Position numbers and translations under genes: made by a program. The notes beneath the pieces were generated by a model. The model searched no databases. It saw only the letters and a program-made list of their open reading frames with translations, and had not been told where the DNA came from. Shown piece by piece: positions 27,001 through 58,646 of a stretch of 64,000 nt of DNA; within the stretch, counting starts at the first letter, position 1, and every line of letters starts with the position of its first letter. The stretch lies in the IMG/VR virus record IMGVR_UViG_3300018077_000007, positions 20,524-84,523 of that record. One strand, 5' to 3'. The stretch comes from a virus.

Positions 27001-30000
27001 TCGAAAAGAGTTATGACCCTGACACGAACCGGGCGGAGAAGGCCGACCTCTTCATAAAGCGCACCATCCAGCCGTACCGACCCCCCGAGCGAGCTGAGAC
27101 CCCCCAAGCGGCCCTCCTGATCGCTCTGAACGAAACCGGGCGAGTGGATCTGGCCCGGATGGCGGCGCTGGTCGGGCAGTCTCCAGAAGGCGTCCAGACA
27201 GCCCTGGCCGGGTTGATTTATAAGAACCCTGAAGGCGACTGGGAAACCGCCGAGGAGTATCTCTCGGGCAACGTGCGGGAGAAGCTCCGGGCCGCCGAAG
27301 TCGCCGCGTCCCTAGAGTCTCTGTATCAGCCGAATGTTGAGGCACTTCTCCGCATCCAGCCGACGGATTTAGTCCCAGGTGAGATCGAGGTGCGCCTGGG
27401 ATCGCCGTGGCTCCCGACCGACACGGCGGAAGCCTTTATTGGGCATCTCCTGGGCGCACAGCCGAGTGCCTTCCGCGTGGGTCATCACGCCGCGACGGCC
27501 ACGTGGACCATTGAGGCGCGTGGATACCAAGGCGACCGTGTTCTCCAGAGTGCTGAGAATCTTCGGGTCTGGGGATCGGAGAACTACCGGGCCGTGGAGT
27601 TAATTCGGGATTCCTTGAATGGGGCATTCCCCACGGTTTGGACAAAAGATGCGGATGGAAAGAATGTGGTGGACCAAGACGCCACCCTTGCGGCCCGCGA
27701 CCAGCAAGAGAAAGTGAAGGCCGAGTTTCGGAAGTGGGTGTGGACCGACGAGGACCGGGCCACCGCATTGGCCCAACTCTACAACGAGCAGTTCAATGCC
27801 CTCCGGCTCCGGGAGCACGACGGGCGCCATTTAGAGTTGCCCGGCATGGCCAAGGGGGTACTCCGGGATGGTGATCTCGCCGCCCATCAAAAGAACGCCG
27901 TCTGGCGCATCCTCCAGGGCGGCAATGCGCTCATTGCCCACCACGTCGGATCAGGGAAAACCTATGTGGCCGCCGCCGCAATGATGGAGTTGCGTCGGCT
28001 CGGATTGGCCCGGAAGCCTATGCTGGTGGTGCCGCGAAGTCGGCTGGAAGGCACGGCAGCCGAGTTTCTTCAACTCTATCCCGCCGCCCACCTGCTGGCC
28101 ATCCAGCCGGAAGACTTGACGCCGCAGAAGCGTCCCGAACTGATGAGCCGGATTGCCACCGGCGACTGGGATGCCGTCACGGTGAGCCGAGAGAGCTTCG
28201 AGCGCCTGCCGGTGCGGAACGCGACCCTCGCCACTTTTATTCGGGAACAACTGCAAGAGTTGGAGGACGCGATCCGGGCCGAGAAGGTCGCCGAGGGACG
28301 CAGCCGAAGCCCGCTCATCCGCAAACTCGAAGTCGCCAAAAAGAAGCTGGAACAGAAGCTAAAAGACGCTCTCAAGCCCGAAGCGAAGGATGTTGCAGTA
28401 GCGTTTGAGGAATTAGGGGTCGATGCCCTTTTCGTGGATGAGGCCCAAGCCTATAAGAATCTGCCGGTCCGCACAGCGGCCCGCAACATCGCGGGGATCA
28501 ACACGGCGGAATCCAACCGGGCCTTCGATCTGTTTATGAAGAGTCAATGGCTCCTGCGCCGCAACAACGGGCGGGGACTGATCTTTTTGACGGGGACCCC
28601 GATTACCAACACCATTGCGGAGATGTATACGCTCCAGCGGTTTCTTGATCTTCCGCGTCTCCGGCAGTTGGGGCTGGCCGAGTTCGACGCTTGGCGGGGG
28701 CAGTTTGGCGAGATCGTTCAGAGCGTAGAACTGAACGTTCAGGCGACGGGATACCGGGTCAAGAGCCGGTTTGCCAAGTTTGTGAATCTGCCGGAACTCT
28801 TAACGCTCTATCGCACCGTGGCGGATGTGCAGACTGACGCGATGCTGAAGCTCCCGAAACCGGGGCTGGCGGGGGGCCGGCGCCGGGAGATCGTGACGAC
28901 TCCGCATCCACGGATGCGCGCCTTCCTGGACGAGTTGAACCATCGGGTGGAAGCCATCCAGAAGCGTGTCGTTGAACCGACCGTAGACAATATGCTCAAG
29001 GTAAGCACCGATGGACGGAAAGCCGCCATTGACATGCGGTTGTTCGATCCGACAGCCGGAGACGTGGCTGGGGGGAAAACCAGCCGAGCCGCCGAGGCCA
29101 TCTACGAACAGTGGCACGTCAATCGGGCGATGAAGGGAACCCAACTCGTATTTGTGGACTTTTCAGCCCCGGCGACGGGAGCGTTCTCCGTGCCGACGGA
29201 CCTCCGCAACAAGTTGGTTAAGTTAGGCATTCCGAAGGCCGAGATCGCCTTTATTCAGGACGCGAAGAACGTCAAGGCTCAGGAACAACTCTTCCAGAAT
29301 GTTCGCCGGGGGCGCATTCGGGTGTTGATCGGGTCCACGGAGAAGATGGGGATTGGGGTGAACGTCCAAAACAAGGTGGTGGCCCTCCACCATCTGGATG
29401 CGCCCTGGCGTCCTGCCGATCTGGAACAACGTGAAGGCCGCGCTTTGCGGCCCGGCAACGAAAACGCCGAAGTCGAGGTTCTGCTCTATCTCACTCCCGG
29501 TTCCTTCGATGCCTATATGTGGCAAACCCTGGAGCGCAAGGCTCGGTTCGTCGACCAGATCATGCGGGGCGAAGTCGGAGTGCGGTCGGCGGAGGACATT
29601 GAGGGCCGAGCCTTCACCTACGCGGAGTATAAGGCCCTCGCGTCGGGGAACCCCATCGTGGCCGAAAAGGTCCAGGTGGACGCGGACATTCTGCGGTTGG
29701 GACGCCTCCGCGCCCACCATGACACACAGCAATGGCAGATCCGGCGCGATCTCGCGGGGCTCCCCGTACGCTTGGCCGAGGCCGACAAGCGGGTGACGGC
29801 AATCCAATCCGACATCGGAACCCGCAATCAAGACCGCCCCGCTGAATTCAGCATGACCATCGCGTTGATGCTCCGCACGGAACACCGTGGCACCTTCACC
29901 GATCGAGTCGAAGCGGGTGAGCAACTCTGGAAAATGTTGAATGCGGCTCGTGGAAGCAGCGCGCCAACGAAACTTGGCGAATTTGCTGGCTTTGCCCTCA

Positions 30001-33000
30001 TGGTAAAGGGGTTTGATACTTCAGACATTACGCCCGCCGTTTGGCTGGAGGGCCAAGCCGAGTATCCGGTTTCGACGCTTTCGGAAACCGGATTAGGTGT
30101 GATTCGCAGCATCGAAGGGCAACTTCTGCACCTCGAAAGTAAACTCACCGAAGCCGAGGCCGACCGTGCTGCCCTCCAGCAGAAGCGCACGACGCTCGAA
30201 GGTGAACTCGATAAACCGTTCCCAGAGGCCGCCAAACTGGCGGAACTGGAGCAACGCCAAGAAGAACTGGCGCAGCAGCTTGATCTCACGGCCAACGACC
30301 ATCAGGCGGCAGGGCAAGAGACCGAGCCCGACGAGGGGGCCGAAGAACCCCCCGAGATCCGCGAACCCGAGTCCCGAATCAACCCCGACGCTGTTCGCGG
30401 GTTCCTGTCTGAAATGCGCGTGGAGCGGGAAGGGGAAACCCGGGCGACGGCCGCGATGGACCCCCGGCTTCTCAAGGTGTTGGGCGGGAACCTCTATACC
30501 GGCGATCTCGGGAAAATCGCGGTGAAAGAGATGCTCCAGAACGCCGTGGACAGCGTGCGTGGTCTGGCCGACCAAGCTCAGGGGCGCGTGACGGTCGACG
30601 TGACGTTGACAGGCGATACCAAGACCATCGCGGTTGAGGATAACGGGGTCGGCATGACCCCCGAGGTGGCGACCCAGGAGTTGGTGGACATCGGCGGAAG
30701 CCAGAAGGTCGCCGGTGCCTCGGGTGGGTTCGGGATCGCCAAGGTCGCGATCTTCGCCAACGCTGCCACGATTGACGTGGAGACCACCGCGAAAGATCCG
30801 GCGGGCCAGGGGGCCACGCGCACGAGGCTCTCCGGCTCATCCGACGAATGGCTTGACCCGCAGCAGGGACTTCGCGTGGAGACCGAGCGGATGGCTCCCG
30901 ACACGCCGACCGGAACTCGAATCAGCATTACCCTGGCCGATACCGTGCAGACGAATCCCTATGAGACCCGCAGCTTTCTGAACAGCTTCCTCCAGTGGCA
31001 TCGGCTCCCGGTCTCGTTCCAGTTCCGTCTCAATGGGGAGATTCAAGCCCTGCCGCAGGGACGGGTTGACCCGCTGAAGACCCTCACGATTCCAGGCGGG
31101 ACGATTGAGCTGTTTGCCACGTCCGACCTGGTGTCTCAAAGCGTAGTCCAGGTCGAAATCCTCAACCACGGACTCCCGCAGTTCCGCCAGGCGTTCTTTC
31201 TCGGGGTGGAGACACAGATCCCGGGGCGGATCGTGGCCGATATTCAGTCCCGAGAAGGGCCAGAAGCCCCCGAGTATCCGTTTTCGCCGGATCGGGAACG
31301 ACTCCGGCCGACGACCGAGAGGGCACTGACCGACTATCTGAAGGATGAACTCGCCAAAGACGCGATCACCAACGAGCGCCGCGAGTACCAACGCATCCTG
31401 TCGGAGGCTCCGGTCATTCCCGGCACGGGCGGTCACCGGATCGTGGACACGACGGAGGGGGTCTCCCGTGATCTCCTCGAAGCGATCGCCACATCCGACG
31501 CCACCCGTCGCGTCTCAGGACACCTGGCCGGGATCGTCGCGCGCCTGCGAGCTGAATTGGCCCGCGTGGAGGCGCAACCGTACTGGGCACCAGAGCAAAT
31601 TCAGTATTTTGGCTTGAGCGTCGCCGGGGCGCACTTGGGGATGAATCTCAATGGCCGCTTGATTGAAGGGAGAGATGACGCCCCCAACCTCGTGGCTTTC
31701 AATCCCTATAGCATCCTCGATGAAGTGCAGACCTTGGCGCAGGTGGCCGGGTTGGCGGCCGACGAAATTCCCCAGCAGTTTGCCGCGAGAGCCGTATTCA
31801 CGGTCATCCACGAACTGGCGCATCAAGCGAGCGGAGCGCACGAACAAACGTATGCGGGAGCCTTGACACGAGCGGGCGGCAACCTGATAATGCAGGCGGC
31901 GCAGGCCACCGCCGCATTGACGGCGCTCGTGAAGGAGCAGAACAATGCCATCCTCCGCACCCTCGCTGCCGACCTTGCCCGGCTCCGCCCTCAGTGGGGC
32001 GGAGAAGACCGTCTTAGCAAAGTTGTCACCGGCCTTGCAGCAACCACCGGAGCCGAAGGCCCTCCGGCTCCTCTTGGCAGACGCGAAGGCGCAGGGGCTC
32101 GACCCAGAGAAGCTCTACCAGCTGGCCGTCCAGGTGCGGTCCCCAGCATGGGTCCCGGCCCCGCCGTACCCGGAGGTCCGCCCGGCGTAGTCCAGGAACC
32201 CATCCTGCCCCCAGCACCCTACGGCGGGGCCGAACCGGCGGGACCGGAATACCGCGCCGCCATGGTGCAGCAGATTCTCGACGACCTCGTGACGGCGGGT
32301 CGGAGAGAATTGAAGACCGCCCCAACCTTTCCCGCGTGGCAAGCCCGGATGTTGGCTCAATGGGGCGATTGGACACGCCCGTATCTTCAGGCGACCTATG
32401 ATCGGCTGACAGCGCCGGAAACTGCCCCGAGGGCAGAACCGACGACCGCCGGGACCCCGCTGCGCCCAGAGCCCGAACCCGCTCCCCCCGAACCCGAACC
32501 GATGGATGCTGGAGTCCCGCCGGTGGAACCGCCGCCGCCCCAGGCCGAGACGATGGCCGCCCCGAATTTCCAGCCGCCGCGAACCCCGAGAGAACGGCAA
32601 GAATTGATCGCCAAGGCCGCGATCCTGAAGCGGCTCGAAGACGTGCTTCGGGTGCCGATCCAGACCGGGCGCGTGAGCCGCCCAGGAGCTCGAGGCGTCT
32701 TCCTCGTCGAACCCGAAGTGATCCGGCTCCGGTGGGCCGGAAACCTCCATACGGGGCTCCATGAGATCGGCCATTTCCTCCACAAGCGCGGGATGCTGCC
32801 CGAGGGGTGGGCGGCGCGGCTCGAAGCATTAGGGCAAGGGCATGAAGGCGATCCCGAACGCGAAGGCACCGCCGAGTTCGTGCGTCTGTTCGTCATGGAC
32901 CCTGCGGGCGCGGAGGCCGCCGCGCCCGGGTTGCCAGACGCCTTCACGGCCCGCCTGAATCGGGACTGGCCCCGCGCCCTCGAAGCCCTCCTCTGGGCCA

Positions 33001-35912
33001 AGGAACGGCTGGCGGAATTTCGTCAGGCCCCTCTCCTGGCCCGGATTGAAGCGTCAACCGTGAAAGGCACTCGCCCGTTCCTGGCGCATCTCCGCAGCCG
33101 ATCCTTCGCAGAGTGGGCCGTCCGGTTTTATACCGCTGTGGTGGACGATCTGGAACCGATCCGCCTGATCGACAGGATTGTGGAAGAGGCCCAGGGGGAG
33201 CCGCTGCCCACGGATCGGCAAGCCTATGTACTGGCCCGGATGGCGCACGGGTGGACCGGGGTGGCGGCGGTTGCCGTGACCGATGGCGTGCCCGATTGGA
33301 ACACGCTGGTCCCCCGCACGGATGTCCCGAGCTTCGTCAAGGCCGTGGAACCGATCTGGAAGGACTGGACGCGGTTTGGGGCCTATGTCCAGCTTCGGCG
33401 GGTGGTGGACGACCTCGTGGGTGCGGAGGCCCCGCCAGCGGACCTCACGGGGCCGGGACGGGCCAAGTGGGACGCGGCCCAACGGCGGCTCCAGGAAGCC
33501 GGGCGGCGCCGGCTCGCCGCGTGGGAGACGACGCCCGCCGAGGCCCAACGGCTCGTGGAGCAGATCGAGACCCCCGCGTTTCGACAGGCGGCCGAGGACC
33601 TCTATCGCTGGAATGGCGCGATCCTGGATTTCGTCGCAGCCTCGGGACGCTACGCCCCGGAGTTTTTGGATCTGCTCCGCCGGATGCACGCCCACTACGT
33701 GCCGTTTTATAGCTGGGTGGAGGAACCCGATGCGATGCCCGGTCCACCCGGCGGCGGCAATCGGCTGGCGAACTTGCCCAGTCCGATTCGGATGCTGCGG
33801 GGGAACGAGTTGCCGCTCCTTGATCCGCTCCTCGCCCTCGTGCGGAACGGCTTCGCCCTCATCAACGTGGCGATTCGGAATGACGTGGGGGCGACCCTCG
33901 TGGACAACATCGAGTCGGTCGAAGGGTTGGGGCATCTCCTCCATCGGGTGCCCCCTCAGATGGTGCCGACGCGCGTCTCTCTCGAAGAAATGCGCGGGCC
34001 AATGGAAGAGGCCGGGCTGGATCTGTCGGATGCCGATCTGTCCACCATGGGCACGGTGTTCCGGCCCGCTCGCGGGAAGGAGCAGGCCCCGTATCTGGTG
34101 ATCTATCGCAATGGGAAGGCTGAACATTACGCCGTCGATCCCCTGCTCTACCAATCGCTCCTGTTCCTGACGCCTCCTGAAGCGAATCTTGCCGTGAAAA
34201 CGGCGGCGTTCTTCGCCAAGATGCTCCGAGGCGGGGTAACGCTGAGTCCATCGTTTGCCGTGGCGAACGTTGTCCGGGATCAGGTGACCGTCGCGGCCAC
34301 GGCGAAGGCCGTCCCGTTCCGTGAATGGGCTGAGGGGGTGGCGGCGATTATCGGCGGCACCGAAGTCGCGAAGCAGTACGCCGCGAGTGGAGCCTCGATC
34401 TTCGGGATTCGCGGGGACGACGTGCGAAGCCTTGAACGCCTGATCCGCCGGGCAGCGCAGGGGCGATTTTCCACGCTCCGAGATGTGGGGGATCGACGGC
34501 AGGGGATGCGGGCTCTCTGGGAGGTGATGGCCGACGCGATAGACGCCATCAGCAGCGGGCAGGAAGCCATCACGGAACGGGCCACCCGCGTTGGCGTCTT
34601 CGGGCGTCAATTAGAACGGCCTAGACCCGAAGATGTCGCCTCCGAACGACCACAACGGGCCATCGCCTTGCGAGCTGGGTTTGAGAGCCGTGAGGCGAGC
34701 GTGGATTGGCGACGGCATGGTGGCAGTCCCGCCCTCCGGCAATTTGCTATGACGACGGTCTTTTTCAATCCCTGGATTCAGGGCGAGGACAAATTCGCCC
34801 GGACCATCGGGGGCAAGCAGAGCCGCGCCCGTGCCGCCTGGATGGGGGCCATCCTGTTTGGAGCCGGGCTGGTGGCGTATCTTTGGAACAAAGAGCATCC
34901 GTCCTGTTGGGATCAGCGGGCCACCTACGAGAAAGACACGAACTTTATCGTGTGCCTGCCGGGGGGGGAGGAGGCCGTGAAGGTGCCGGGCGCGTGGGAG
35001 TGGCACGTTGGATTTATCGCGATCCCGCGCCGGGTGTTTGAGTATTTTGACCGCACCGATCCCGACATCCTCCATAACTTTCTTCGGACCTCTGGGCGCG
35101 GGCTCTTTCCCGGCAGTTGGCTTCCGAACATTTTCGTGCCCTGGCTGGAAAACGCGATGAACTGGTCCATTTTCCCGGGGCGCCCTTTGGTGCCCCGGGG
35201 TGTAGAAGGTCGGGAACCCGCCGAGCGTGACACGCCTGGGACCGCCGAAGTCGCCCGGCGGATCGGGAAGGCGCTGAACTATCCCCCTCCGTTCGTCCAG
35301 AACGTCATCCGGGGCTATTTCGGCACGGTCGGGATGGAACTGACGCGGCTCCTCGATCCGCTCCTGGCGGATCCCACCGCCCCGCCCCCGGCTCGGCGGC
35401 TGAGTGATTATCCCGTCATCCGCCGGTTCTTCGCGTCTGGCCCGTCCCTCCAGTCCGAATGGATCGAACGATTCTACCGATACCGCAAGCAAGCGACCGA
35501 GGCGAAGGGGAGTTATGACCAGAAGCAGAAGATCGCCGGGTGGGCGGCATTGGTCGCCACCGATGAGGGTCGGAAGGAACTCCGACGCCGTGAACTCCAG
35601 GGCGATCCCCGGCTCCACGAGGTGGAGCGCTTTGCAAAAGCGCGGGCCTGGGAATTGACGATCGCCAGCAGTTTTGAGCACACCGCCAGCCTGTTTGCCC
35701 AGAGCCGGGAAGACTTCGAAGCGATCCGCGCCGATCCGAAGCTGACGCCCGAGCAGAAACAGGTGGAGTCGGACAAGATCAAACGAGCCATGGTGCAGGA
35801 AGCGAAGGAACGGGTGCAGGGAGCCGACCTCTTGCGGCGCACCCTTAGCATCCAGGCGGCGGAGAAGGCGGCGGCGGCGGAGAAGGCGACCGCCGCAGGA
35901 GGAGGCCGATGA
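21006..35912 (+). CDS. Giant polyvalent protein: methyltransferase, SNF2-type helicase, GHKL ATPase, HExxH modules, LPD38-like C-terminus
   Basis: 4,968 codons. Modules in order (approximate residues): Pro-rich linkers with small SH3-like repeats (1-1400); Rossmann N6-adenine methyltransferase with EPAMGIGYFFGF (~1642) and SNVPFGEFG (~1705, equivalent to NPPF/Y); SF2/SNF2 helicase with HHVGSGKT (~2310), DEAQ (~2476), TGTP (~2528) and motif VI-like LEQREGRALRPG (~2810); GHKL ATPase with EMLQNAVDS (~3175), VEDNGVGM (~3210) and GGFGIAK (~3240); metallopeptidase-like HELAH (~3602); a second HEIGH (~3919); LPD38-like end with FAVANVVRDQ (~4415) and NPWIQGEDKFAR (~4588). DarB-like and polyvalent proteins of this kind are carried in virions and injected to protect or open incoming DNA (family knowledge). 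Two small genes are nested in other frames at module borders, so it may be three ancestral cistrons read as one. Confidence 0.85.
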   Translation: MASPFETALEEDLAELTGHRPKGRPPVPPVLSPFERNLTEDLKALTEEKRTRLAEEAFGIDLAGRPRPTMEEVAGVSPAQILAPALPTSPEAAAALSLRTAPEPVIPPVPSHLEVLRTPPGQPGPGIAPVIPAGAPLPGRVQPVSRPPAMTAEMAFAQAPEAMVEAPSTTPDILAALAALPRVARPTLEEMTPEAKLLRSLMALPSEVFAQQGPPAPPPKITPYQAPSVFEPPETVAGRAGRAMVFGLRTGAVGQFARWLNQQIGEQLPGPPSGPVQAIDPDNAFEQLIALGTSLGTDWKLFSFGGKVGMEAMSRVLNGIGAGMTKRGVAAGLTEAEARAAAQQVLRENPVVQMLTGAAVGASALAIPGAARETSRELVTGEPLQPGKIAAAAGKEAIIGGLTFGVAAPIDSRILRATALILGFGTLPPIVQEQRMPTAHDLINAGVSIGLIELAAALMGVRSGWQARQARGEPLPELGRDVVGNVIYDRVLGIFKRKGMSENEARASADRLIQETVGVAAKPTRATTGAQPATPGEAGSLARPREGLTEPEIELDVLERRAAELHRQIAAEEAAPAPPPPPAAPPAPLPPPAPRPPALVPVPPAPTEIAPPVPPVAPGAPLPAPIERPPAPVTWGGWQETPTGPPLELWTLTEAIPGHPDGSTVGRETLEAAGFTVPEPPEIPPQVPAPTRPAPQVPVPPAGVAGAPPPSVPETAPGAELPPETPRGTLPTEGFTRVGAAEYGDLPKEGRSIYNPTGLRGRVVGSDAENFYVSRLAGSVAWVDKYPRQLIEDTQAYFTEGAAVQTPYGPATLVTPPARDDRGMVMVTVRWPAGIPAEVSDRLGASALLDAPVFQGRPEMQADWVGWRTVRPGYPSVGQWKLRQPIKGHESGEVVTALAIRDAGFRAPIPPEAPPAPPTAPKAPVAPVPPPPKPPRPGKRLLRPDQLSDFRPGIDRVERRGDRTFVVDSLGERAPVEVQSDVVIPEIETRLRAQRTQPALRNRAIQAIRQTPFLSPEGKAERLRILEEPEELPAPEAAPPVTPTVQPTPPPSGVIPVPRPTDYRLVQRLPTDPVTIQMREPTGRWTTATTVDDVPAAEEWVRAWGGTIIRRTLPPPPLTAGSRVRLKDGRDGTVESLKGGVARVKLPSGQKVNAPLRSLTPKEPEIAVPAAPPPTPTLEEGQRQGTLVPIEPATTKAISDQVSEYLKRLEQVEGTLEPEEIAEGQVLLTRVQDHLDELPAAALSQRADMRAAEEKLRLPAEQGTRPEYVGPTRPPPSPPEPPKPIDLDRLGPSMRRAEIRGAKVGQAVTFRGETWALAKSGYWTHGGETLATQALVSHFESMSRQPAPIPPVPPTEVLPSGRVQLADGRQGTVVGRSEGLAPWKGIITRVRLDDGTEVNVRTDRLTSVPAAPTLAGEEGGRAVIPPREPERPAESRGPDRRPLAEVSPEPSPRPRGGQPVEGLGGGGRAPDRGGAGRPAGETGAIQPSVGGRPPRVGVPAGGRRGARPAPSVPTNLDYRFTPDDAARIVSGGPKERVRRNLDSIRLLKEIEAAGRPATPEEQQTLAAYVGWGPFKQIFERYWDPKWADLYQEIKDTLTEDEYEAARASSLNAFYTTPGVVEAMWGAVKQFGLPGGPATRILEPAMGIGYFFGFMPDTFTGVRRVGVELDPITGRMATLLFPSTRVHVQGFETVPFPKNFFDLAVSNVPFGEFGVHDPAYRREPFLTESIHNYFFAKALDVVRPSGVVAFITSRYTLDARNSRFRQWLADRATLLGAVRLPETAFQRAAGTEVVTDILFFQKYPSGTTPTWVDSTPMQVSGVTKHVNAYFQEHPEMVLGRHVVERGMYEPEALTVKPTGDLLQQLAAALAELPEDVIRSAGIPVRDPLPAAVPEPPGAVKDGGFFLDQGAIFRKHGTEAVSADIPVAQIPKVTALLHIRDAAREVLRAQLEELPDAEWETARTHLNRLYDIFLKRHGPLSARTVHREFTGDPDFPFLLALEKSYDPDTNRAEKADLFIKRTIQPYRPPERAETPQAALLIALNETGRVDLARMAALVGQSPEGVQTALAGLIYKNPEGDWETAEEYLSGNVREKLRAAEVAASLESLYQPNVEALLRIQPTDLVPGEIEVRLGSPWLPTDTAEAFIGHLLGAQPSAFRVGHHAATATWTIEARGYQGDRVLQSAENLRVWGSENYRAVELIRDSLNGAFPTVWTKDADGKNVVDQDATLAARDQQEKVKAEFRKWVWTDEDRATALAQLYNEQFNALRLREHDGRHLELPGMAKGVLRDGDLAAHQKNAVWRILQGGNALIAHHVGSGKTYVAAAAMMELRRLGLARKPMLVVPRSRLEGTAAEFLQLYPAAHLLAIQPEDLTPQKRPELMSRIATGDWDAVTVSRESFERLPVRNATLATFIREQLQELEDAIRAEKVAEGRSRSPLIRKLEVAKKKLEQKLKDALKPEAKDVAVAFEELGVDALFVDEAQAYKNLPVRTAARNIAGINTAESNRAFDLFMKSQWLLRRNNGRGLIFLTGTPITNTIAEMYTLQRFLDLPRLRQLGLAEFDAWRGQFGEIVQSVELNVQATGYRVKSRFAKFVNLPELLTLYRTVADVQTDAMLKLPKPGLAGGRRREIVTTPHPRMRAFLDELNHRVEAIQKRVVEPTVDNMLKVSTDGRKAAIDMRLFDPTAGDVAGGKTSRAAEAIYEQWHVNRAMKGTQLVFVDFSAPATGAFSVPTDLRNKLVKLGIPKAEIAFIQDAKNVKAQEQLFQNVRRGRIRVLIGSTEKMGIGVNVQNKVVALHHLDAPWRPADLEQREGRALRPGNENAEVEVLLYLTPGSFDAYMWQTLERKARFVDQIMRGEVGVRSAEDIEGRAFTYAEYKALASGNPIVAEKVQVDADILRLGRLRAHHDTQQWQIRRDLAGLPVRLAEADKRVTAIQSDIGTRNQDRPAEFSMTIALMLRTEHRGTFTDRVEAGEQLWKMLNAARGSSAPTKLGEFAGFALMVKGFDTSDITPAVWLEGQAEYPVSTLSETGLGVIRSIEGQLLHLESKLTEAEADRAALQQKRTTLEGELDKPFPEAAKLAELEQRQEELAQQLDLTANDHQAAGQETEPDEGAEEPPEIREPESRINPDAVRGFLSEMRVEREGETRATAAMDPRLLKVLGGNLYTGDLGKIAVKEMLQNAVDSVRGLADQAQGRVTVDVTLTGDTKTIAVEDNGVGMTPEVATQELVDIGGSQKVAGASGGFGIAKVAIFANAATIDVETTAKDPAGQGATRTRLSGSSDEWLDPQQGLRVETERMAPDTPTGTRISITLADTVQTNPYETRSFLNSFLQWHRLPVSFQFRLNGEIQALPQGRVDPLKTLTIPGGTIELFATSDLVSQSVVQVEILNHGLPQFRQAFFLGVETQIPGRIVADIQSREGPEAPEYPFSPDRERLRPTTERALTDYLKDELAKDAITNERREYQRILSEAPVIPGTGGHRIVDTTEGVSRDLLEAIATSDATRRVSGHLAGIVARLRAELARVEAQPYWAPEQIQYFGLSVAGAHLGMNLNGRLIEGRDDAPNLVAFNPYSILDEVQTLAQVAGLAADEIPQQFAARAVFTVIHELAHQASGAHEQTYAGALTRAGGNLIMQAAQATAALTALVKEQNNAILRTLAADLARLRPQWGGEDRLSKVVTGLAATTGAEGPPAPLGRREGAGARPREALPAGRPGAVPSMGPGPAVPGGPPGVVQEPILPPAPYGGAEPAGPEYRAAMVQQILDDLVTAGRRELKTAPTFPAWQARMLAQWGDWTRPYLQATYDRLTAPETAPRAEPTTAGTPLRPEPEPAPPEPEPMDAGVPPVEPPPPQAETMAAPNFQPPRTPRERQELIAKAAILKRLEDVLRVPIQTGRVSRPGARGVFLVEPEVIRLRWAGNLHTGLHEIGHFLHKRGMLPEGWAARLEALGQGHEGDPEREGTAEFVRLFVMDPAGAEAAAPGLPDAFTARLNRDWPRALEALLWAKERLAEFRQAPLLARIEASTVKGTRPFLAHLRSRSFAEWAVRFYTAVVDDLEPIRLIDRIVEEAQGEPLPTDRQAYVLARMAHGWTGVAAVAVTDGVPDWNTLVPRTDVPSFVKAVEPIWKDWTRFGAYVQLRRVVDDLVGAEAPPADLTGPGRAKWDAAQRRLQEAGRRRLAAWETTPAEAQRLVEQIETPAFRQAAEDLYRWNGAILDFVAASGRYAPEFLDLLRRMHAHYVPFYSWVEEPDAMPGPPGGGNRLANLPSPIRMLRGNELPLLDPLLALVRNGFALINVAIRNDVGATLVDNIESVEGLGHLLHRVPPQMVPTRVSLEEMRGPMEEAGLDLSDADLSTMGTVFRPARGKEQAPYLVIYRNGKAEHYAVDPLLYQSLLFLTPPEANLAVKTAAFFAKMLRGGVTLSPSFAVANVVRDQVTVAATAKAVPFREWAEGVAAIIGGTEVAKQYAASGASIFGIRGDDVRSLERLIRRAAQGRFSTLRDVGDRRQGMRALWEVMADAIDAISSGQEAITERATRVGVFGRQLERPRPEDVASERPQRAIALRAGFESREASVDWRRHGGSPALRQFAMTTVFFNPWIQGEDKFARTIGGKQSRARAAWMGAILFGAGLVAYLWNKEHPSCWDQRATYEKDTNFIVCLPGGEEAVKVPGAWEWHVGFIAIPRRVFEYFDRTDPDILHNFLRTSGRGLFPGSWLPNIFVPWLENAMNWSIFPGRPLVPRGVEGREPAERDTPGTAEVARRIGKALNYPPPFVQNVIRGYFGTVGMELTRLLDPLLADPTAPPPARRLSDYPVIRRFFASGPSLQSEWIERFYRYRKQATEAKGSYDQKQKIAGWAALVATDEGRKELRRRELQGDPRLHEVERFAKARAWELTIASSFEHTASLFAQSREDFEAIRADPKLTPEQKQVESDKIKRAMVQEAKERVQGADLLRRTLSIQAAEKAAAAEKATAAGGGR
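23149..23163. repeat. Copy 2 of dispersed palindrome
   Basis: ctgcccc-g-ggggcag, 7-bp perfect stem, inside the Pro-rich linker of the giant gene where it encodes part of ETAPGAELP. Copy 3 encodes the similar ETAPRAEP. Confidence 0.45.
25267..25593 (+). CDS. Small gene nested in the giant frame, unknown
   Basis: 108 residues in the +1 frame inside the giant gene. A clear GAGGAGG lies 6 nt before GTG 25267. The product is well-behaved and mostly helical (IEDHWRKYRPNLVRALEADS; AALLTVEALDDLLEKRVPYN; QAWEAVRHEWAFLP). Over exactly this stretch the giant frame reads as low-complexity Gly/Arg/Pro text, as a non-coding shadow would. The small protein is therefore almost certainly translated. It lies between the Pro-rich N-terminus and the methyltransferase-helicase module. 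A GTG at 25491 could restart the giant frame downstream. Confidence 0.75.
   Translation: MPLSHHENPNVPPSLAAQIEDHWRKYRPNLVRALEADSQLKDSVEEAALLTVEALDDLLEKRVPYNQAWEAVRHEWAFLPAEDEVPDLPLPFLPISITASPQTTPPAS
31945..32190 (+). CDS. Second small gene nested in the giant frame, unknown
   Basis: 81 residues in another frame, with AAGGAG 8 nt before ATG 31945. The product is plausible and helical (SGAEKTVLAKLSPALQQPPE; KALRLLLADAKAQGLDPEKL), while the giant frame over its 3' part is Gly/Pro/Arg low-complexity. It sits between the HELAH module and the helix starting MVQQILDDLV (ATG 32262), another possible cistron start. Same arrangement as the nested gene at 25267. Confidence 0.6.
   Translation: MPSSAPSLPTLPGSALSGAEKTVLAKLSPALQQPPEPKALRLLLADAKAQGLDPEKLYQLAVQVRSPAWVPAPPYPEVRPA
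32422..32436. repeat. Copy 3 of dispersed palindrome
   Basis: ctgccc-cga-gggcag inside the giant gene linker, followed by AA like the other copies. Confidence 0.4.
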
Positions 35913-51447: not shown

Positions 51448-51731
51448 GTCGGGGCGATGGCGACCTGGCCTTCCTGTTCCGCCACCCCTGCGGCTGCGCC
51501 TCGGCGGTCGTGGTGGAGGACCCGGGCACGTTGCATTACGTGGACACACTCATCTTGTGGAAGCGCCGCAAGACCGGTACCATCGAGCACGTGACCGTGG
51601 ACGCGGCCCGCGAGGCGCTCGCCAGGACGTTCAAACGGCATCCCGCCGGGCAACGGCGGCGGAAGGACTGGGCGACCCCGCACCAGGACGGCGGGGATCT
51701 GCGCATCGGGGACGAGGAGGCGACCGAGTGA
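51444..51731 (+). CDS. Unknown protein downstream of the HNH gene
   Basis: 95 residues from ATG 51444, overlapping the restored HNH stop. LAFLFRHPCGCASAVVVEDP with two Cys and a basic C-terminus. Overlaps the next GTG. Confidence 0.6.
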   Translation: MSRGDGDLAFLFRHPCGCASAVVVEDPGTLHYVDTLILWKRRKTGTIEHVTVDAAREALARTFKRHPAGQRRRKDWATPHQDGGDLRIGDEEATE

Positions 51732-52552
51732 GCCTGAGAATTCTGAGCCTCGGGGCCGGGGTGCAAAGCACGGCGGTCTATTTGCTCGCGCTTGATGGCA
51801 AAATCACACCGATTGACGCGGCGGTGTTTGCGGACACTCAAGAGGAATCGGACGCCGTGTATCGACACCTGGAGTGGTTGCAGAATCTCCACGGGCCGGC
51901 TATCTACGTACGGACTGCCGGGAAGTTGGGCAATGATCTCCAGCGCGGGATAAACTCCACGGGCCAGCGCTTTGTATCCATTCCCGCTTACACCGCGCCG
52001 GTGGGCGTGCGCCCCGCGATCGGCATGGTCCAGCGCCAATGTACGCAGGAGTATAAAATCCGCGTTGTGGAGCGCACGATCCGGCGCGACATCTTGGGGC
52101 TGAAGCCCCGCGCTCGGTGGCCGAAGGATCGCCCCGTCGTGCAGCTGTTCGGCATTTCCACCGACGAAGCACGGCGGGCGACGAGCATCCAGCGTCGGTT
52201 TAAGGGAATTCGCACGGTGGACTTCCCCCTCCTAGCCCTGGGGTGGACCCGTGGAGACTGTCTCCGGTTCCTGGCGGATCGTGTCCCGCATCCGGTCCCT
52301 CGGTCCGCCTGCGTCTTTTGTCCCTTCAAGTCCGATGCGGAGTGGTGGCTCCTTCAGCAAACCGATCCGGCGGGGTGGCGGCGGGCGGTGGAGATCGACG
52401 AGGCCATCCGGGAGAAGTCATTCGCGCGTCGGATGAAGCAATCGCTTTATCTTCATCGGTCGGCTCGCCCCCTAGCGGAGATTGAGTTTGAGCCGAAACA
52501 GCATGAGTTTCCTGGGTTTGCCCTCGAATGCGAAGGCGGGTGCGGGACGTAA
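51728..52552 (+). CDS. PAPS-reductase-like / adenine nucleotide alpha-hydrolase protein
   Basis: 274 residues from GTG 51728. N-terminal P-loop-like LSLGAGVQSTAVYLLALDG is the SGGxxS-type PP-loop of the PAPS reductase/N-type ATP pyrophosphatase superfamily. Then FADTQEESDAVYRHLEWL, QRQCTQEYKIR, and CVFCPFKSDAEWW with a CxxC. Phage members are frequent; proposed roles include sulfur or base-modification chemistry, but function here is unproven. Ends GGCGT*, within the direct repeat that precedes the first leader RNA. Confidence 0.75.
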   Translation: MSLRILSLGAGVQSTAVYLLALDGKITPIDAAVFADTQEESDAVYRHLEWLQNLHGPAIYVRTAGKLGNDLQRGINSTGQRFVSIPAYTAPVGVRPAIGMVQRQCTQEYKIRVVERTIRRDILGLKPRARWPKDRPVVQLFGISTDEARRATSIQRRFKGIRTVDFPLLALGWTRGDCLRFLADRVPHPVPRSACVFCPFKSDAEWWLLQQTDPAGWRRAVEIDEAIREKSFARRMKQSLYLHRSARPLAEIEFEPKQHEFPGFALECEGGCGT

Positions 52553-54992: not shown

Positions 54993-55502
54993 ATGGCCGA
55001 ACTTCACACCCTACCGCCTATTGAGGCCGCTCCGCCATCCCCAGATCTCCCGGGCCAGATCGCTCGGCTCCAGCGGCACCTTCAGCGCCGGAAGGACGCT
55101 CTGGCGCGACTGGAGAAAACCCTGGCCCAGACTCGGCAGAAGCTCCGGAAGACGGCGGAACTCTACGAACTGGCCCGGGTGGCGCTGGCGATCGCGCTCC
55201 CCTTGGCCCGGCAGGATCGTCCCACCGAGGTCGCCGCAGTCTTGGAGGAAACGATCAGCGCGATTCTGTACGGGTCCCCCGAGGCACGGACGCGCATCTT
55301 CGCAGCGGCCCGGAAACGGGATGAGGCGCTCTTGACGCTGCGGGCGAAGGTGACGGAGTTACACGGGGCATTGAGCCGGGCCAAGCGCACGATTCGGGGA
55401 TGGCGGAGCCACGGGTGGACGCAGACGGAAGAGGCGCAAGGATGGGCACTCTACCAAAGCTCTCCCGAGATGCAGGAGATCAACAGGGCGCTCGGGGAAT
55501 AA
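54993..55502 (+). CDS. Coiled-coil protein upstream of the TIGR-like array
   Basis: 169 residues behind AGAGAGGAGG. Helical throughout (IARLQRHLQRRKDALARLEK; ELARVALAIALPLARQ; ALLTLRAKVTELHGALSRAK). No family recognised. It ends two bases before the first array unit, so array and tas are probably on its transcript; no separate promoter is evident. It could be an accessory of the RNA-guided system, but this is only proximity. Confidence 0.65.
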   Translation: MAELHTLPPIEAAPPSPDLPGQIARLQRHLQRRKDALARLEKTLAQTRQKLRKTAELYELARVALAIALPLARQDRPTEVAAVLEETISAILYGSPEARTRIFAAARKRDEALLTLRAKVTELHGALSRAKRTIRGWRSHGWTQTEEAQGWALYQSSPEMQEINRALGE

Positions 55503-55504
55503 AC

Positions 55505-56082
55505 GAGCGAGCCAGAGGAGTAAAGGCACCCGCGATGAAGGAGCGAGCCGTCAAGATGGAGTCCCCCGTTATCACGGAGCGAGCCGCCAGGTTCAAGACA
55601 CCCATATCTCAAGAGCGAGCCGCGTTGTTGGAGACATCCGCGACAAGAGAGCGAGCCGGTAAACAGGAGGCACCCGTGATGGAGAAGCGAGCCGTAAGAG
55701 GGAAGTCACCCGCGACGAGCAAGCGAGCCGCCCTGAACAAGCTACCTGTGGAGGAAAAGCGAGCCGCCCAAGGTGAGGCACCCGTAATGAATGTGCGAGC
55801 CGGTAAAGGGGAGACCCCCATGAGGCGGAAGCGAGCCACGCGAACGAAGACCCCCGCAAGCGAGGAGCGAGCCGACAAAGGTGAGGCACCCGTCCAAGAA
55901 GAGCGAGCCGTGAGAATAGAGGCACCCGCTTCAGAAGAGCGAGCCGCGCAGAACGAGACACCCGTCTCAGGAAAGCGAGCCGCGCTCTTTAAGCCACCCG
56001 TGGGGGGAAAGCGAGCCTCGCTCGGTGAGTTACCCGTGACGGAAAAGCGAGCCGAAGAGATTGAGTCACCCGGACGAAATGA
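55505..56082 (+). repeat. TIGR-like array: 16 units of 36 nt with paired variable windows
   Basis: GCGAGCC starts at 55507 and recurs every 36 nt exactly, 16 times, to 56047. Numbering each unit from that G: block 1 (positions 35-8) RAGCGAGCCg, with 1-7 invariant in 16/16; block 2 (17-26) RAGnCaCCCg, with A18, G19 and C24 invariant. The blocks are degenerate copies of each other offset by 18 nt, so each unit is two half-units of 10 conserved plus 8 variable nt. Variable windows 9-17 / 27-35 in order: gaggagtaa/cgatgaagg, tcaagatgg/ttatcacgg, ccaggttca/tatctcaag, cgttgttgg/cgacaagag, gtaaacagg/tgatggaga, taagaggga/cgacgagca, ccctgaaca/tggaggaaa, cccaaggtg/taatgaatg, gtaaagggg/tgaggcgga, cgcgaacga/caagcgagg, acaaaggtg/tccaagaag, tgagaatag/cttcagaag, cgcagaacg/tctcaggaa, cgctcttta/tggggggaa, cgctcggtg/tgacggaaa, aagagattg/gacgaaatg. 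TIGR arrays give 36-nt tigRNAs with two short guides. The strand is inferred from the gene. Confidence 0.88.
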
Positions 56083-56788
56083 GCGTCTTTCTCCTCATCT
56101 CCCGCGCCTCGCCACGCTTTTCCAGTCGATCCAGCGAGATCGCGTAGGACTTGAACGGTCGCTGGCCACCAAAGCCGACGTGCATGATCCGAGGGCAAAG
56201 GAGATTTATGAACAGTTGATCCGCCTCGAAGAGACCGTCGTGGCCTATCTCCACACGGAATGTCATCGGAGCCCGGTCTGGCCCTGGCTCTCCAGCGTGA
56301 AGGGGATCGGCGAGCGCCTGGGGGGGATGCTGGTCGGGCTCATCGACATTCACCGCGCCCCGTCAATTTCAAGTCTCTGGAAGTTCGCGGGGCTTGCCCC
56401 GGGGGCAGATCGCCGCGTCAAGGGGCAGAAGCTCCCCTACAACAACCTCCTGAAAAAGACGTGCTTCCTCGTGGCGCGCCAATTCATCCTCGCCGGGACG
56501 CAACCCTACGAGGGCGTCTACCGGGAGGCTAAGGCGTATTACGAGCAGAACCGCCCCGAGTGGCGCCCAGGGCACTGCGATTTGGCGGCGCGGCGGAAGG
56601 CCGTCAAATTGTTTCTCGGACACCTCCACACAAGGTGGTGTGAGGCCGAGGGGCTCCCGATCCGGCCCCCCTATGCGATGGGGGTTTTGCACCATGATGG
56701 ATATATTCCGCCGCCAGAACGTGTTCAATGGTCTGTCCCACCAGCGAGCGCAAACCCAGGACTTCAGTCCGGGGACAAGCGAGCCTAG
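56036..56788 (+). CDS. tas: TasA-like protein (Nop/IS110-C-terminal-like domain, no nuclease)
   Basis: The frame is open from 55400 because the array has no stop in it. Non-repetitive protein starts at ~56078; GTG 56036 is an arbitrary in-frame choice (ATG 55820 after AAGGGGAG, GTG 56180 and TTG 56216 also exist). Unique part: helical N-terminus (LFQSIQRDRVGLERSLATKA; YEQLIRLEETVVAYLHTECH), then WLSSVKGIGERLGGMLVGLI, SISSLWKFAGLAPGADRRVK and NNLLKKTCFLVARQFILAGT. This is the helix-hairpin core shared by IS110 C-terminal (Transposase_20) and Nop domains. IS110's N-terminal DEDD domain is absent and its catalytic Ser-Gly is replaced by GADRR, so it is not a transposase. No RuvC or HNH is present, hence Nop-only. 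The last ~16 codons (after ~56740) are IS-derived. Expected role: bind tigRNAs and guide-matched DNA. Confidence 0.78.
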   Translation: MTEKRAEEIESPGRNERLSPHLPRLATLFQSIQRDRVGLERSLATKADVHDPRAKEIYEQLIRLEETVVAYLHTECHRSPVWPWLSSVKGIGERLGGMLVGLIDIHRAPSISSLWKFAGLAPGADRRVKGQKLPYNNLLKKTCFLVARQFILAGTQPYEGVYREAKAYYEQNRPEWRPGHCDLAARRKAVKLFLGHLHTRWCEAEGLPIRPPYAMGVLHHDGYIPPPERVQWSVPPASANPGLQSGDKRA

Positions 56789-57875
56789 CATGCAGATTAC
56801 GCTGAAGCTGCGACTTCGGGATCGGCATGCGGCGAAGCTCGCCCGCCACGCCAGGGCGGTCAACTATGTATGGAACTACTGCAACGAGCGACAGCGGCAG
56901 GCGGTCCGCGAGTGCCGCCGCTGGCTCAGCTACCCAGCGCTGGCGGCGCTGACGGCAGGCACGAGCGTGGATCTCGACCTCCACGCCCATACGATTCAGC
57001 GCGTGTGCCTTGCCTATGCCGCCGCACGCCGAGCGCATAAGAAGCCGTGGCTGAGGTGGCGCGGACGGCGGTCACTCGGCTGGGTGCCGTTCAACACGGG
57101 CCACGTTTCGTTCGATGGCGAAGCCTTCACCTTTCGTGGTGTTCGCTACGAGACGATGCACCTCCGGGAGATTCCGACCGGGGCGGTGATCGGTGCTGGT
57201 TCTTTCAACGCTGACGCCCGTGGTCGTTGGTACATCAACCTGCCAGTCGAAGTGCTGGAAGCCACCAGCGCCAGCATTACCCACGTCGGGATCGACCTGG
57301 GCCTCAAAGACTTCGCTACGCTCTCGACCGGCGAAAAGATCGCCGCCCCGCGTTTCTACCGGGCGTCCGAGACCAAGCTGGCGACGGCGCAGCGCGCCCG
57401 CAAGACACGTCACGCTCGCGCGATCCACCGAAAGATCGCCGCCCGCCGGCGGGATTTTCTGCACAAGACGAGCGTACAACTTGTGAAGCGCTTCGGGCTC
57501 ATCTTCGTCGGCGACATCAACCCCTCGCAACTCGTTCGGACCACGATGGCGAAGAGCGTACTCGACGCCGGGTGGTCGAACTTCCGGGCCATGCTCCGCT
57601 ACAAATCGCGATTACGCGGTGGTGGGGTGTGCTTGGAAGTCTCGGAACATTTGAGTACCCAGACCTGCTCGGAGTGCGGCAGGTTGCCCGCTTCGAGGCC
57701 GAGAGGTATCGCAGGTCTGCGTGAGAGGGTGTGGCGGTGCGACGACTGCGGGACGGTCCACGACCGCGACGTGAACGCCGCCCGCAACATCCTCCGTCTG
57801 GGACAGCAGACGCTCGGAGGAGGAGCCCATGTCTGAGATCGGGAAGCCCCGGTCTTTAGACCAAGGAGCTGTCAC
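56741..57875 (+). mobile_element. IS605/IS1341-type element with TnpB, inserted in the 3' end of tas
   Basis: Left-end hairpin 56755-56774 (aaaCCCaggac-TTCA-gtccGGGG) followed by acaagcg, matching the layout of the left end of the 10.4-11.8 kb element. Right end: gaagccccggtctttagacc then aaggagctgtca, a diverged version of the gaatcccc...gaggatgtcaa signature (hairpin 57851-57862). No TnpA. Exact ends uncertain by ~15 nt. The omega RNA would lie at the 3' end of tnpB with its guide beginning near 57875. Confidence 0.65.
56790..57836 (+). CDS. tnpB: TnpB RNA-guided nuclease homologue
   Basis: 348 residues. RuvC-I Asp in THVGIDLGLKDFATLSTG. The RuvC-II segment reads RFGLIFVGDINPSQLVRTTM, where most TnpBs have a Glu before Asp (here Gly-Asp). 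Zinc ribbon CSECG...CDDCG. RuvC-III Asp in HDRDVNAARNIL. This belongs to a TnpB lineage with VGD(V/I) at RuvC-II, whose catalytic Glu may be supplied from elsewhere. Begins one base after the tas stop. Confidence 0.85.
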   Translation: MQITLKLRLRDRHAAKLARHARAVNYVWNYCNERQRQAVRECRRWLSYPALAALTAGTSVDLDLHAHTIQRVCLAYAAARRAHKKPWLRWRGRRSLGWVPFNTGHVSFDGEAFTFRGVRYETMHLREIPTGAVIGAGSFNADARGRWYINLPVEVLEATSASITHVGIDLGLKDFATLSTGEKIAAPRFYRASETKLATAQRARKTRHARAIHRKIAARRRDFLHKTSVQLVKRFGLIFVGDINPSQLVRTTMAKSVLDAGWSNFRAMLRYKSRLRGGGVCLEVSEHLSTQTCSECGRLPASRPRGIAGLRERVWRCDDCGTVHDRDVNAARNILRLGQQTLGGGAHV

Positions 57876-58002
57876 TGAACACGGTTCCTGGGCGCCGCGC
57901 GAAGAGGACTTGGATCCCGCCATTCGGCAGCGCGAGCGACGCCAAATCCTATTGAAGTGTGCTGGTTACCGGCGCGCCCGACGACGCACAGGGCCGACAT
58001 GA
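57876..58002 (+). pseudogene. Displaced 3' fragment, possibly the original end of tas
   Basis: After the right end of the element an open frame without a start reads EHGSWAPREEDLDPAIRQRE then RRQILLKCAGYRRARRRTGP and stops at TGA 58000-58002, overlapping the next ATG (ATGA). Such coupled overlaps mark genuine gene ends in this genome, so this is likely the basic C-terminal tail of the gene interrupted by the element, most simply tas. Confidence 0.45.
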
Positions 58003-58646
58003 TTCAACACAAACATTGGCAGTTCGAACGAGAAGAAGATCTCGACGAGTGTCTTCGGCAACGGGCGCAGGGCGGGTTTGCCGAGAACCTTGAAACATGC
58101 GAATTAGTTCAACTCGCCGACTCGTTGCAGCGGTGGGCGAAGACCGGGCACAAAAACCTACCGGAGTATCTCGAATCCGTCTGCGGGTTGAACTATAGAT
58201 CTCTGCGTCGCTATCTGAGCATTGTGGAGGCACTGGCCACGGTCGGGGAGCCACTCAGGAAGGCCGTGCGGGATCTGCTCTTGGCAATGGGGGCGAAGAA
58301 GGCCAGCATTCTGGCACCGTGGATCGAGGAGCAGGGCGAGGCGGTGACGGTGGAGGCCGTCGCGGCGTGGGCCGAGCAGGCGGCGGGCATGACCGAGGCG
58401 GCGTTTCAGGAAGCGGTGACCACGGCGCGCGGGGCGAAGCCCCGGGGGGCGGCAGGCGACGCCGAGGCGCAGGTCTTGAAACTCCTGCTGTCCGTCGTGC
58501 CTCCCGAACGATATGCGTGGGCCGAGCGGGTCTACCGGATGGCCGCGCGGGTGGCTGAGACGACGAACCCGATCTATGCGTATCTGGTGGCCTTGGAGTT
58601 GCTCGCGCAGGACTTGGCGCACCAGGGGCATCCGGTGGAGGGATAA
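57999..58646 (+). CDS. Helical protein, possible DNA-binding
   Basis: 215 residues from ATG 57999. HTH-like stretch (YLESVCGLNYRSLRRYLSIV) and two further helical segments (ASILAPWIEEQGEAVTVEAV; VLKLLLSVVPPERYAWAERV). No named family. Follows the tas/IS region. Confidence 0.6.
   Translation: MIQHKHWQFEREEDLDECLRQRAQGGFAENLETCELVQLADSLQRWAKTGHKNLPEYLESVCGLNYRSLRRYLSIVEALATVGEPLRKAVRDLLLAMGAKKASILAPWIEEQGEAVTVEAVAAWAEQAAGMTEAAFQEAVTTARGAKPRGAAGDAEAQVLKLLLSVVPPERYAWAERVYRMAARVAETTNPIYAYLVALELLAQDLAHQGHPVEG

What the first reader, a model, noticed from the sequence alone, without database searches (positions are those of the whole stretch)
55505..56788. TIGR-Tas RNA-guided locus (TasA-like) in a phage genome
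Seen: 16 perfect 36-nt units, each with two conserved 10-nt blocks (RAGCGAGCCg and RAGnCaCCCg) and two 8-nt windows with no conservation between units, directly in front of a gene whose only recognisable domain is the Nop/IS110-C-terminal helix-hairpin core without DEDD, Ser, RuvC or HNH catalysis. Known: TIGR-Tas systems consist of tandem interspaced guide arrays processed into 36-nt tigRNAs carrying two short spacers, next to Tas proteins with a Nop domain, found in phages and parasitic bacteria. Unit length, two-guide layout, domain and host type all match. Inferred: a Nop-only member would bind rather than cut guide-matched DNA, perhaps silencing host, plasmid or rival-phage genes.
Basis: partly seen in the sequence, partly recalled or inferred. 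Interest (0 to 1): 0.97.

Follow-up and report, generated by a model that had tools for sequence, protein, structure and literature searches.

The report
Phage TIGR-TasA RNA-guided DNA-binding locus
A bacteriophage carries a compact TIGR-Tas system, a row of paired short RNA guides next to the Nop-domain protein that uses them to find DNA; it is a genuine new member of a family first described in 2025, with the small surprise that the guide array runs into the protein's own reading frame.

Summary
Window 55505-56080 contains 16 head-to-tail units of exactly 36 nt: edge repeat RAGCGAGCCg, 8-nt spacer A, loop repeat RAGnCACCCg, 8-nt spacer B. A truncated edge repeat follows at 56081-56085. The next gene encodes a solo Nop-domain protein.

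The protein passes NCBIfam's TIGR-Tas model (156 bits, cut-off 100). Its profile matches only TasR and TasH in the PDB (5e-36, 2e-33), and its predicted fold matches TasR, then TasH, IS110 and Nop5. The published Salicola phage TIGR-TasH locus was recovered as a control, with nearly the same repeats. About 32 of 37 related loci carry adjacent 36-nt arrays. There is no nuclease domain, so it is TasA-type: most likely a tigRNA-guided DNA binder and bender, not a cutter. Targets are unknown; none were found in its own genome or nine related phage genomes beyond chance.

The array is not a repeat protein: all 16 Arg codons are CGA (p ~5e-15). One twist: no in-frame start codon lies between array and Nop domain, so tasA translation must start inside the array, unless a frameshift or assembly error misleads. 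Guide maturation could then compete with effector translation. It is a new member of a known kind.

The parts
55505..56080 (+). TIGR array: 16 units of 36 nt (edge repeat cols 1-10 RAGCGAGCCg; spacer A cols 11-18; loop repeat cols 19-28 RAGnCACCCg; spacer B cols 29-36)
   Evidence: same architecture in relatives and in the published Salicola phage locus
56081..56085 (+). 3'-truncated terminal edge repeat (GAGCG)
   Evidence: truncated terminal edge repeats are typical of TIGR arrays (PMC12045711)
56096..56788 (+). tasA: Nop-domain core and C-terminal tail, ending at the TAG stop codon
   Evidence: NF052498 TIGR_Tas_endo 156 bits against cut-off 100; model helices start near 56099; Foldseek TasR/TasH
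55400..56788 (+). Full open frame (462 codons) that runs in frame through the whole array into tasA
   Evidence: the array part is predicted disordered (single sequence, weak)
56036..56038 (+). GTG: last in-frame start codon before the Nop domain, inside spacer B of unit 15, with GGTGAG 6 nt upstream; earlier in-frame candidates are ATG 55820, 55787, 55679, 55535 and 55400
   Evidence: the next in-frame start (GTG 56180) would cut off the first helix of the domain
56079..56081 (+). Out-of-frame ATG overlapping the truncated edge repeat; it resembles the real tas start in L074 (AAATGAGCG)
54993..55502 (+). Upstream gene (169 aa, unknown function); its stop codon lies 2 nt before the array, so the array is probably in the same transcript
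56790..57836 (+). TnpB-family RNA-guided nuclease gene (IS605 OrfB) directly behind tasA; probably a separate insertion, not part of the TIGR system
   Evidence: NF040570 guided_TnpB 200 bits against cut-off 100; PF07282, PF01385

Best explanation
The locus is a phage-borne TIGR-TasA system. Shown here: the array anatomy, the protein family and fold, the absence of any fused nuclease, and conserved linkage of array and gene. Inferred from published TIGR-Tas work: the array is transcribed on the + strand, a host RNase acting with TasA cuts it in the edge repeats into 36-nt tigRNAs, and a TasA dimer holds each tigRNA through the box C/D-like ends of edge and loop repeats (here CCG and RAG). Spacers A and B (8 nt each) pair with opposite strands of one ~16-bp DNA site. 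Further inference: without a nuclease the complex binds, opens and sharply bends its target and so blocks transcription or replication of some foreign or host DNA. Because tasA translation appears to start inside the array, maturation of the last guides and translation of TasA would compete for the same RNA.
For: NCBIfam NF052498 TIGR_Tas_endo 1e-45, above its curated cut-off. phmmer hits PDB 9mty (TasR) at 6e-17 and TasH at 4e-9; a 12-sequence profile hits only TasR (5e-36) and TasH (2e-33) in the whole PDB. Foldseek of the AF2 model (mean pLDDT 79): TasR E 6e-10, TM 0.67; TasH; then IS110 transposases; then Nop5. Array: 36-nt period, two repeats, two 8-nt spacers; published tigRNAs are 36 nt, and SpTIGR uses 16 nt of spacer. 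Salicola phage CGphi29, the published TasH locus, was recovered by homology; its array (edge RAGCGAGCCA, loop AAGACAACCA) is nearly the same. 32 of 37 related loci, some near-duplicates, have an adjacent 36-nt-period array by script. The third base of box C covaries between edge and loop across arrays: CCG/CCG in the window, L014 and L015, CCA/CCA in most others, as expected for a symmetric dimer. RNA-level constraint: 16 of 16 Arg codons are CGA (genome usage 12.7%) and the variable blocks show no codon pattern.
Against: No RNA or binding data. No target found in the own genome or nine related phage genomes. Solo-Nop TasA function is open in the literature. The tasA start lies inside the array or is obscured by a frameshift. 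A TnpB element sits against the 3' end and may have altered the last residues, so activity is not assured.
Confidence: 0.87

Rival explanations
1. The array is the coding sequence of a 12-residue repeat domain (E/K-R-A...E-x-P) fused to the Nop protein, not a guide RNA array.
For: The frame is open through all 16 units and fused to tasA. Chance of an open frame is 1.4% by base shuffle, 14% by column shuffle.
Against: Third codon positions of the edge repeat never vary: CGA in 16/16 Arg (p 5e-15), GCC in 16/16 Ala (p 3e-6). Two 8-nt windows vary across all codon positions. Relatives' arrays have units of 35-40 nt and stops in all frames. The array part is predicted disordered (weak).
Confidence: 0.03
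2. It is an IS110-family transposase remnant with tandem repeats at its end, as PHROGs 'transposase' suggests.
For: PHROG 4285 is annotated 'transposase'; Pfam Transposase_20 matches weakly; the Nop fold is shared with IS110.
Against: No DEDD RuvC or catalytic Ser domain. TasR/TasH beat IS110 in sequence and fold, and the window protein gave no NCBIfam IS110 match. The family is one per record and array-linked in nearly every phage.
Confidence: 0.02
3. TIGR-TasA, but decayed: a frameshift in the tasA N-terminus and/or the TnpB insertion at its 3' end inactivated it, and the array is a relic.
For: An out-of-frame ATG at 56079 overlaps the terminal edge exactly as the real start does in L074. 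No in-frame start lies between array and domain. TnpB starts at the tasA stop codon, and the last ~12 residues lie in a palindromic stretch.
Against: The Nop core is intact and aligns to the family end. All 16 repeats are well preserved. L068 also has tas starts only inside its array. In-array starts with Shine-Dalgarno-like sequence exist.
Confidence: 0.15
4. TIGR-TasA that aids phage integration or segregation (DNA bending for an integrase or ParB) rather than silencing competing DNA.
For: Suggested for TasA in PMC12045711.
Against: No ParB-like neighbour recognised among the flanking genes tested; the gene at 57957-58646 has no match. An integrase was not specifically searched for. No own-genome target.
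Confidence: 0.15

Closest known systems
Salicola phage CGphi29 SpTIGR-TasH (PMC12045711; L021)
   Same: Nearly identical edge and loop repeats, 36-nt units, 8+8-nt spacers, Nop domain, tailed phage
   Different: TasH has an N-terminal HNH nuclease and its array lies behind the gene; the window protein has no nuclease and its array lies in front. Protein identity about 25%.
[quoted passage not shown]
   Same: Solo Nop effector with a dual-repeat array
   Different: FpTIGR is reported with 18 nt of spacer; direct sequence comparison was not possible because the sequence is not held here
TaTasR (PDB 9mty)
   Same: Nop core, sequence E 6e-17, best fold match
   Different: TasR has an N-terminal RuvC nuclease, 9-nt spacers and UG...CCA box motifs; here RAG...CCG
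Microcystis phage Mvi-JY20 XAI95461.1 (L016)
   Same: TasA-size protein, 40% identical over the core, 36-nt array with terminator
   Different: Array behind the gene; edge ATGCGAGCC, loop ACGAAACCC; cultured phage annotated 'hypothetical protein'
IS110/IS621 bridge-RNA transposases and archaeal Nop5
   Same: Share the Nop fold and two-guide, box C/D-like RNA logic
   Different: Have DEDD/Ser or fibrillarin partners, one RNA per element, no arrays of this kind; weaker matches

Membership tests
TIGR-Tas (dual-repeat TIGR array) | Tandem array of two alternating 8-12-nt repeats with two short spacers | tested here: met
TIGR-Tas (dual-repeat TIGR array) | Nop-domain protein encoded next to the array and belonging to the Tas family | tested here: met
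   NF052498 above cut-off; PDB TasR/TasH hits; fold
TIGR-Tas (dual-repeat TIGR array) | Array linkage conserved among relatives | tested here: met
   32 of 37 loci by script; several of the remainder lie close to a contig end
TIGR-Tas (dual-repeat TIGR array) | Box C/D motifs shared by edge and loop repeats and covarying | tested here: met
   RAG...CCG in both repeats here; CCA/CCA in most relatives
TIGR-Tas (dual-repeat TIGR array) | Processing to 36-nt tigRNA | not testable with these tools
   needs small-RNA sequencing
TIGR-Tas (dual-repeat TIGR array) | Tandem-spacer binding of opposite DNA strands | tested here: inconclusive
   no natural composite target found in own or nine related phage genomes
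TasA subtype | No HNH or RuvC domain fused to the Nop domain | tested here: met
   upstream in-frame sequence is the array; no nuclease family hit
IS110 transposase | N-terminal DEDD RuvC-like domain and catalytic serine | tested here: not met
   protein consists of the Nop part only

The most novel reading that the evidence does not exclude
The TIGR array doubles as the 5' coding region of its own effector. TasA translation starts inside the array (window; also L068), so each transcript yields either the last tigRNA or TasA: a built-in processing-versus-translation switch that keeps TasA in step with its guides. More broadly, in all nine upstream-array loci examined, including the window, the tas start overlaps or closely follows the terminal edge repeat.
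Probability: 0.22. Interest if true: 0.68.

Novelty: new member of a known kind. Interest (0 to 1): 0.5.

Why it matters
TIGR-Tas was described only in 2025, and what solo-Nop TasA does in nature is open. This locus adds a well-preserved 16-unit system in a phage and repeats with matching base changes in edge and loop. It also leads to cultured relatives (a Microcystis phage; mycobacterio-, Arthrobacter and Rhodococcus phages) in which TasA function can be tested by gene removal. The array-effector overlap suggests a testable regulatory rule.

Tried and rejected
Composite targets: all 16 spacer pairs (8 or 9 nt, both orders, gaps 0-2) against the own genome gave hits at or below the mismatched-pair null. 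About 190 pairs from 13 arrays against ten phage genomes (own included) and four shorter contigs gave 15 hits at up to 1 mismatch against about 15 expected; the single exact hit (L005 unit 3 in G005) is within the null. Whole-collection scans with single 16-nt composites were not run because I estimated about 20 chance hits per pattern. Array RNA folding: z -0.84, no stable structure, as expected for a dual-repeat array. No sigma-70-like promoter in front. No Rfam family in the window. A second copy of the phage to check the tasA frame: none in viral contigs (near-identical records may be hidden). The extra edge-like 9-mer at 56777 is within chance (2.5 expected per window). No plasmid hits. 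The first genome-contig scan found nothing; the second found three MAG loci.

Full report
OBSERVATION. The sequence 55505-56080 consists of 16 units of exactly 36 nt. Each unit reads edge repeat RAGCGAGCCg (columns 1-10), 8 variable bases, loop repeat RAGnCACCCg (columns 19-28), 8 variable bases. The edge core GCGAGCC (columns 3-9) is invariant in all 16. The composite motif is found 17 times in 64 kb, 16 in the array; shuffles give 1.3 on average and never more than 5. A truncated edge GAGCG follows at 56081-56085, so 15 units lie between two full edges. The stop codon of the preceding gene (54993-55502) lies 2 nt before the first edge.

PROTEIN. The frame that ends at 56788 holds a Nop domain. 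The Pfam hit is weak (Transposase_20) and PHROGs calls the family 'transposase' (phrog_4285). NCBIfam's TIGR_Tas_endo model NF052498 scores 156 bits against a cut-off of 100. Single-sequence search of the PDB gives TasR (9mty, 6e-17) and TasH (4e-9). A 12-sequence profile gives TasR 5e-36 and TasH 2e-33 and nothing else. The AlphaFold model (250 aa, mean pLDDT 79) matches TIGR-TasR (E 6e-10, TM 0.67), TasH, then the IS110 transposases ISCro4 and IS621, then weakly Nop5. No HNH, RuvC or DEDD domain is fused; upstream in frame there is only the array. This is the TasA layout of Faure et al. (PMC12045711).

RELATIVES. Scans of viral contigs gave more than 30 related loci, and a genome scan gave three MAG loci. 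A script found a 36-nt-period array next to the tas gene in 32 of 37 loci, some of them near-duplicates. The published TasH locus of Salicola phage CGphi29 came up independently; its array reads RAGCGAGCCA / AAGACAACCA. Among cultured phages, Microcystis phage Mvi-JY20 has a 40% identical TasA and a 36-nt array ending in a terminator. Across arrays the last base of box C changes together in edge and loop: CCG/CCG in the window, L014 and L015, CCA/CCA in most others. Faure et al. describe the same covariation and explain it by binding to a symmetric dimer.

RNA, NOT PROTEIN. The array is open in frame 0 (chance 1.4% by base shuffle, 14% by column-preserving shuffle). Selection is nevertheless at nucleotide level: the Arg codon is CGA 16/16 although CGA makes up 12.7% of Arg codons in this phage, the Ala codon is GCC 16/16, and variability follows spacers, not codon positions. 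Relatives' arrays have units of 35-40 nt and stops in all frames.

START CODON AND OVERLAP. The Nop domain match begins at about 56108. In frame, no ATG, GTG or TTG lies between 56039 and 56179, so translation must begin at GTG 56036 or further upstream, inside the array. Several in-array ATGs follow Shine-Dalgarno-like sequence supplied by the loop repeat, for example AGGAGG, 8 nt, ATG 55679. L068 shows the same arrangement: its only tas starts before the domain are ATGs inside its array, and the edge is read as ERA in both. In the other upstream-array loci (L001, L014, L052, L056, L073, L074, L077) the tas start overlaps or closely follows the terminal edge repeat. Caution: the window also has ATG 56079 overlapping the terminal edge, out of frame, in the position of L074's real start, so a single-base frameshift or assembly error is an alternative; no second copy was found to decide. 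If the overlap is real, cleavage of the last units would remove the tasA start, making guide maturation and TasA synthesis mutually exclusive on one transcript. This is inference.

TARGETS. By the published geometry (8-nt 3' overhangs) I take the target to read spacer B followed by the reverse complement of spacer A, gap 0-2. No window spacer pair has a target in its own genome beyond the mismatched-pair null, nor do about 190 pairs in related phage genomes. Spacers are purine-rich, and in the window have 50% G+C in a 64% G+C genome.

CONTEXT. The record is an 84.5-kb virus contig with large terminase (LAGLIDADG intein-like insert), small terminase and P22-like portal, RecE-like exonuclease, DnaD-like loader, methyltransferases and PAPS reductase. 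A TnpB gene (NF040570, 200 bits) begins right behind the tasA stop; palindromic sequence at both ends suggests an IS605-type insertion that supplied the last residues of TasA (inference).

MECHANISM. Most likely (0.87 for identity and RNA-guided DNA binding; steps beyond identity are inferred from published relatives): one transcript, processing to 36-nt tigRNAs, a TasA dimer holding each tigRNA through box C/D-like ends, paired 8-nt guides opening a ~16-bp site, and interference by binding and bending rather than cutting. What it silences is unknown.

NOVELTY. New member of a known kind. The array-effector overlap is, as far as the held text of PMC12045711 goes, not described, and is the part worth an experiment.

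Noticed in passing
L017 3510-3780 (Mycobacterium phage Kanely gp71), L018 3360-3870 (Arthrobacter phage Talia1610 gp255), L019 3355-3780 (Rhodococcus phage Peregrin gp187): TasA homologues in cultured actinophages lack dual-repeat arrays, but the intergenic stretch just in front holds several perfect or near-perfect stem-loops (9-25 bp arms, loops of about 31-44 nt): apparently stem-loop type TIGR arrays. Kanely gp71 and Peregrin gp187 pass the TIGR_Tas model at 232 and 206 bits.
   Followed up: partly
L016 (PP438412.1 21367-22434): Microcystis phage Mvi-JY20 encodes an unannotated TIGR-TasA with an array of about 10 units and a terminator.
   Followed up: partly
window 56755-57900: TnpB-family gene directly behind tasA, flanked by short palindromes (ACCCAGGACTTCAGTCCGGGG and GAAGCCCCGGTCTTTAGACCAAGG); its RuvC-II motif reads VGDINPS without the usual glutamate. 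Two RNA-guided systems sit side by side.
   Followed up: partly
all arrays: TIGR spacers are purine-rich (52-63%) and in most arrays lower in G+C than the genome that carries them; this could reflect their source or avoidance of RNA structure.
   Followed up: partly
L014 4418-4646 and 5604-6162; L073; L077: Some tas genes have arrays on both sides.
   Followed up: no
L022 70-2490: Large terminase with a LAGLIDADG intein-like insertion.
   Followed up: no
window 21006-35912: A single open frame of 4968 codons in the structural region; not identified.
   Followed up: no
window 1947-3464: Phage gene with a weak Wzy_C (O-antigen ligase) match, E 2e-7.
   Followed up: no
window 51557-52552: PAPS-reductase-like gene a few kb upstream of the TIGR locus (phrog_424); L006 has a similar-looking gene (322 aa) immediately upstream of its tas gene (by eye).
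   Followed up: no
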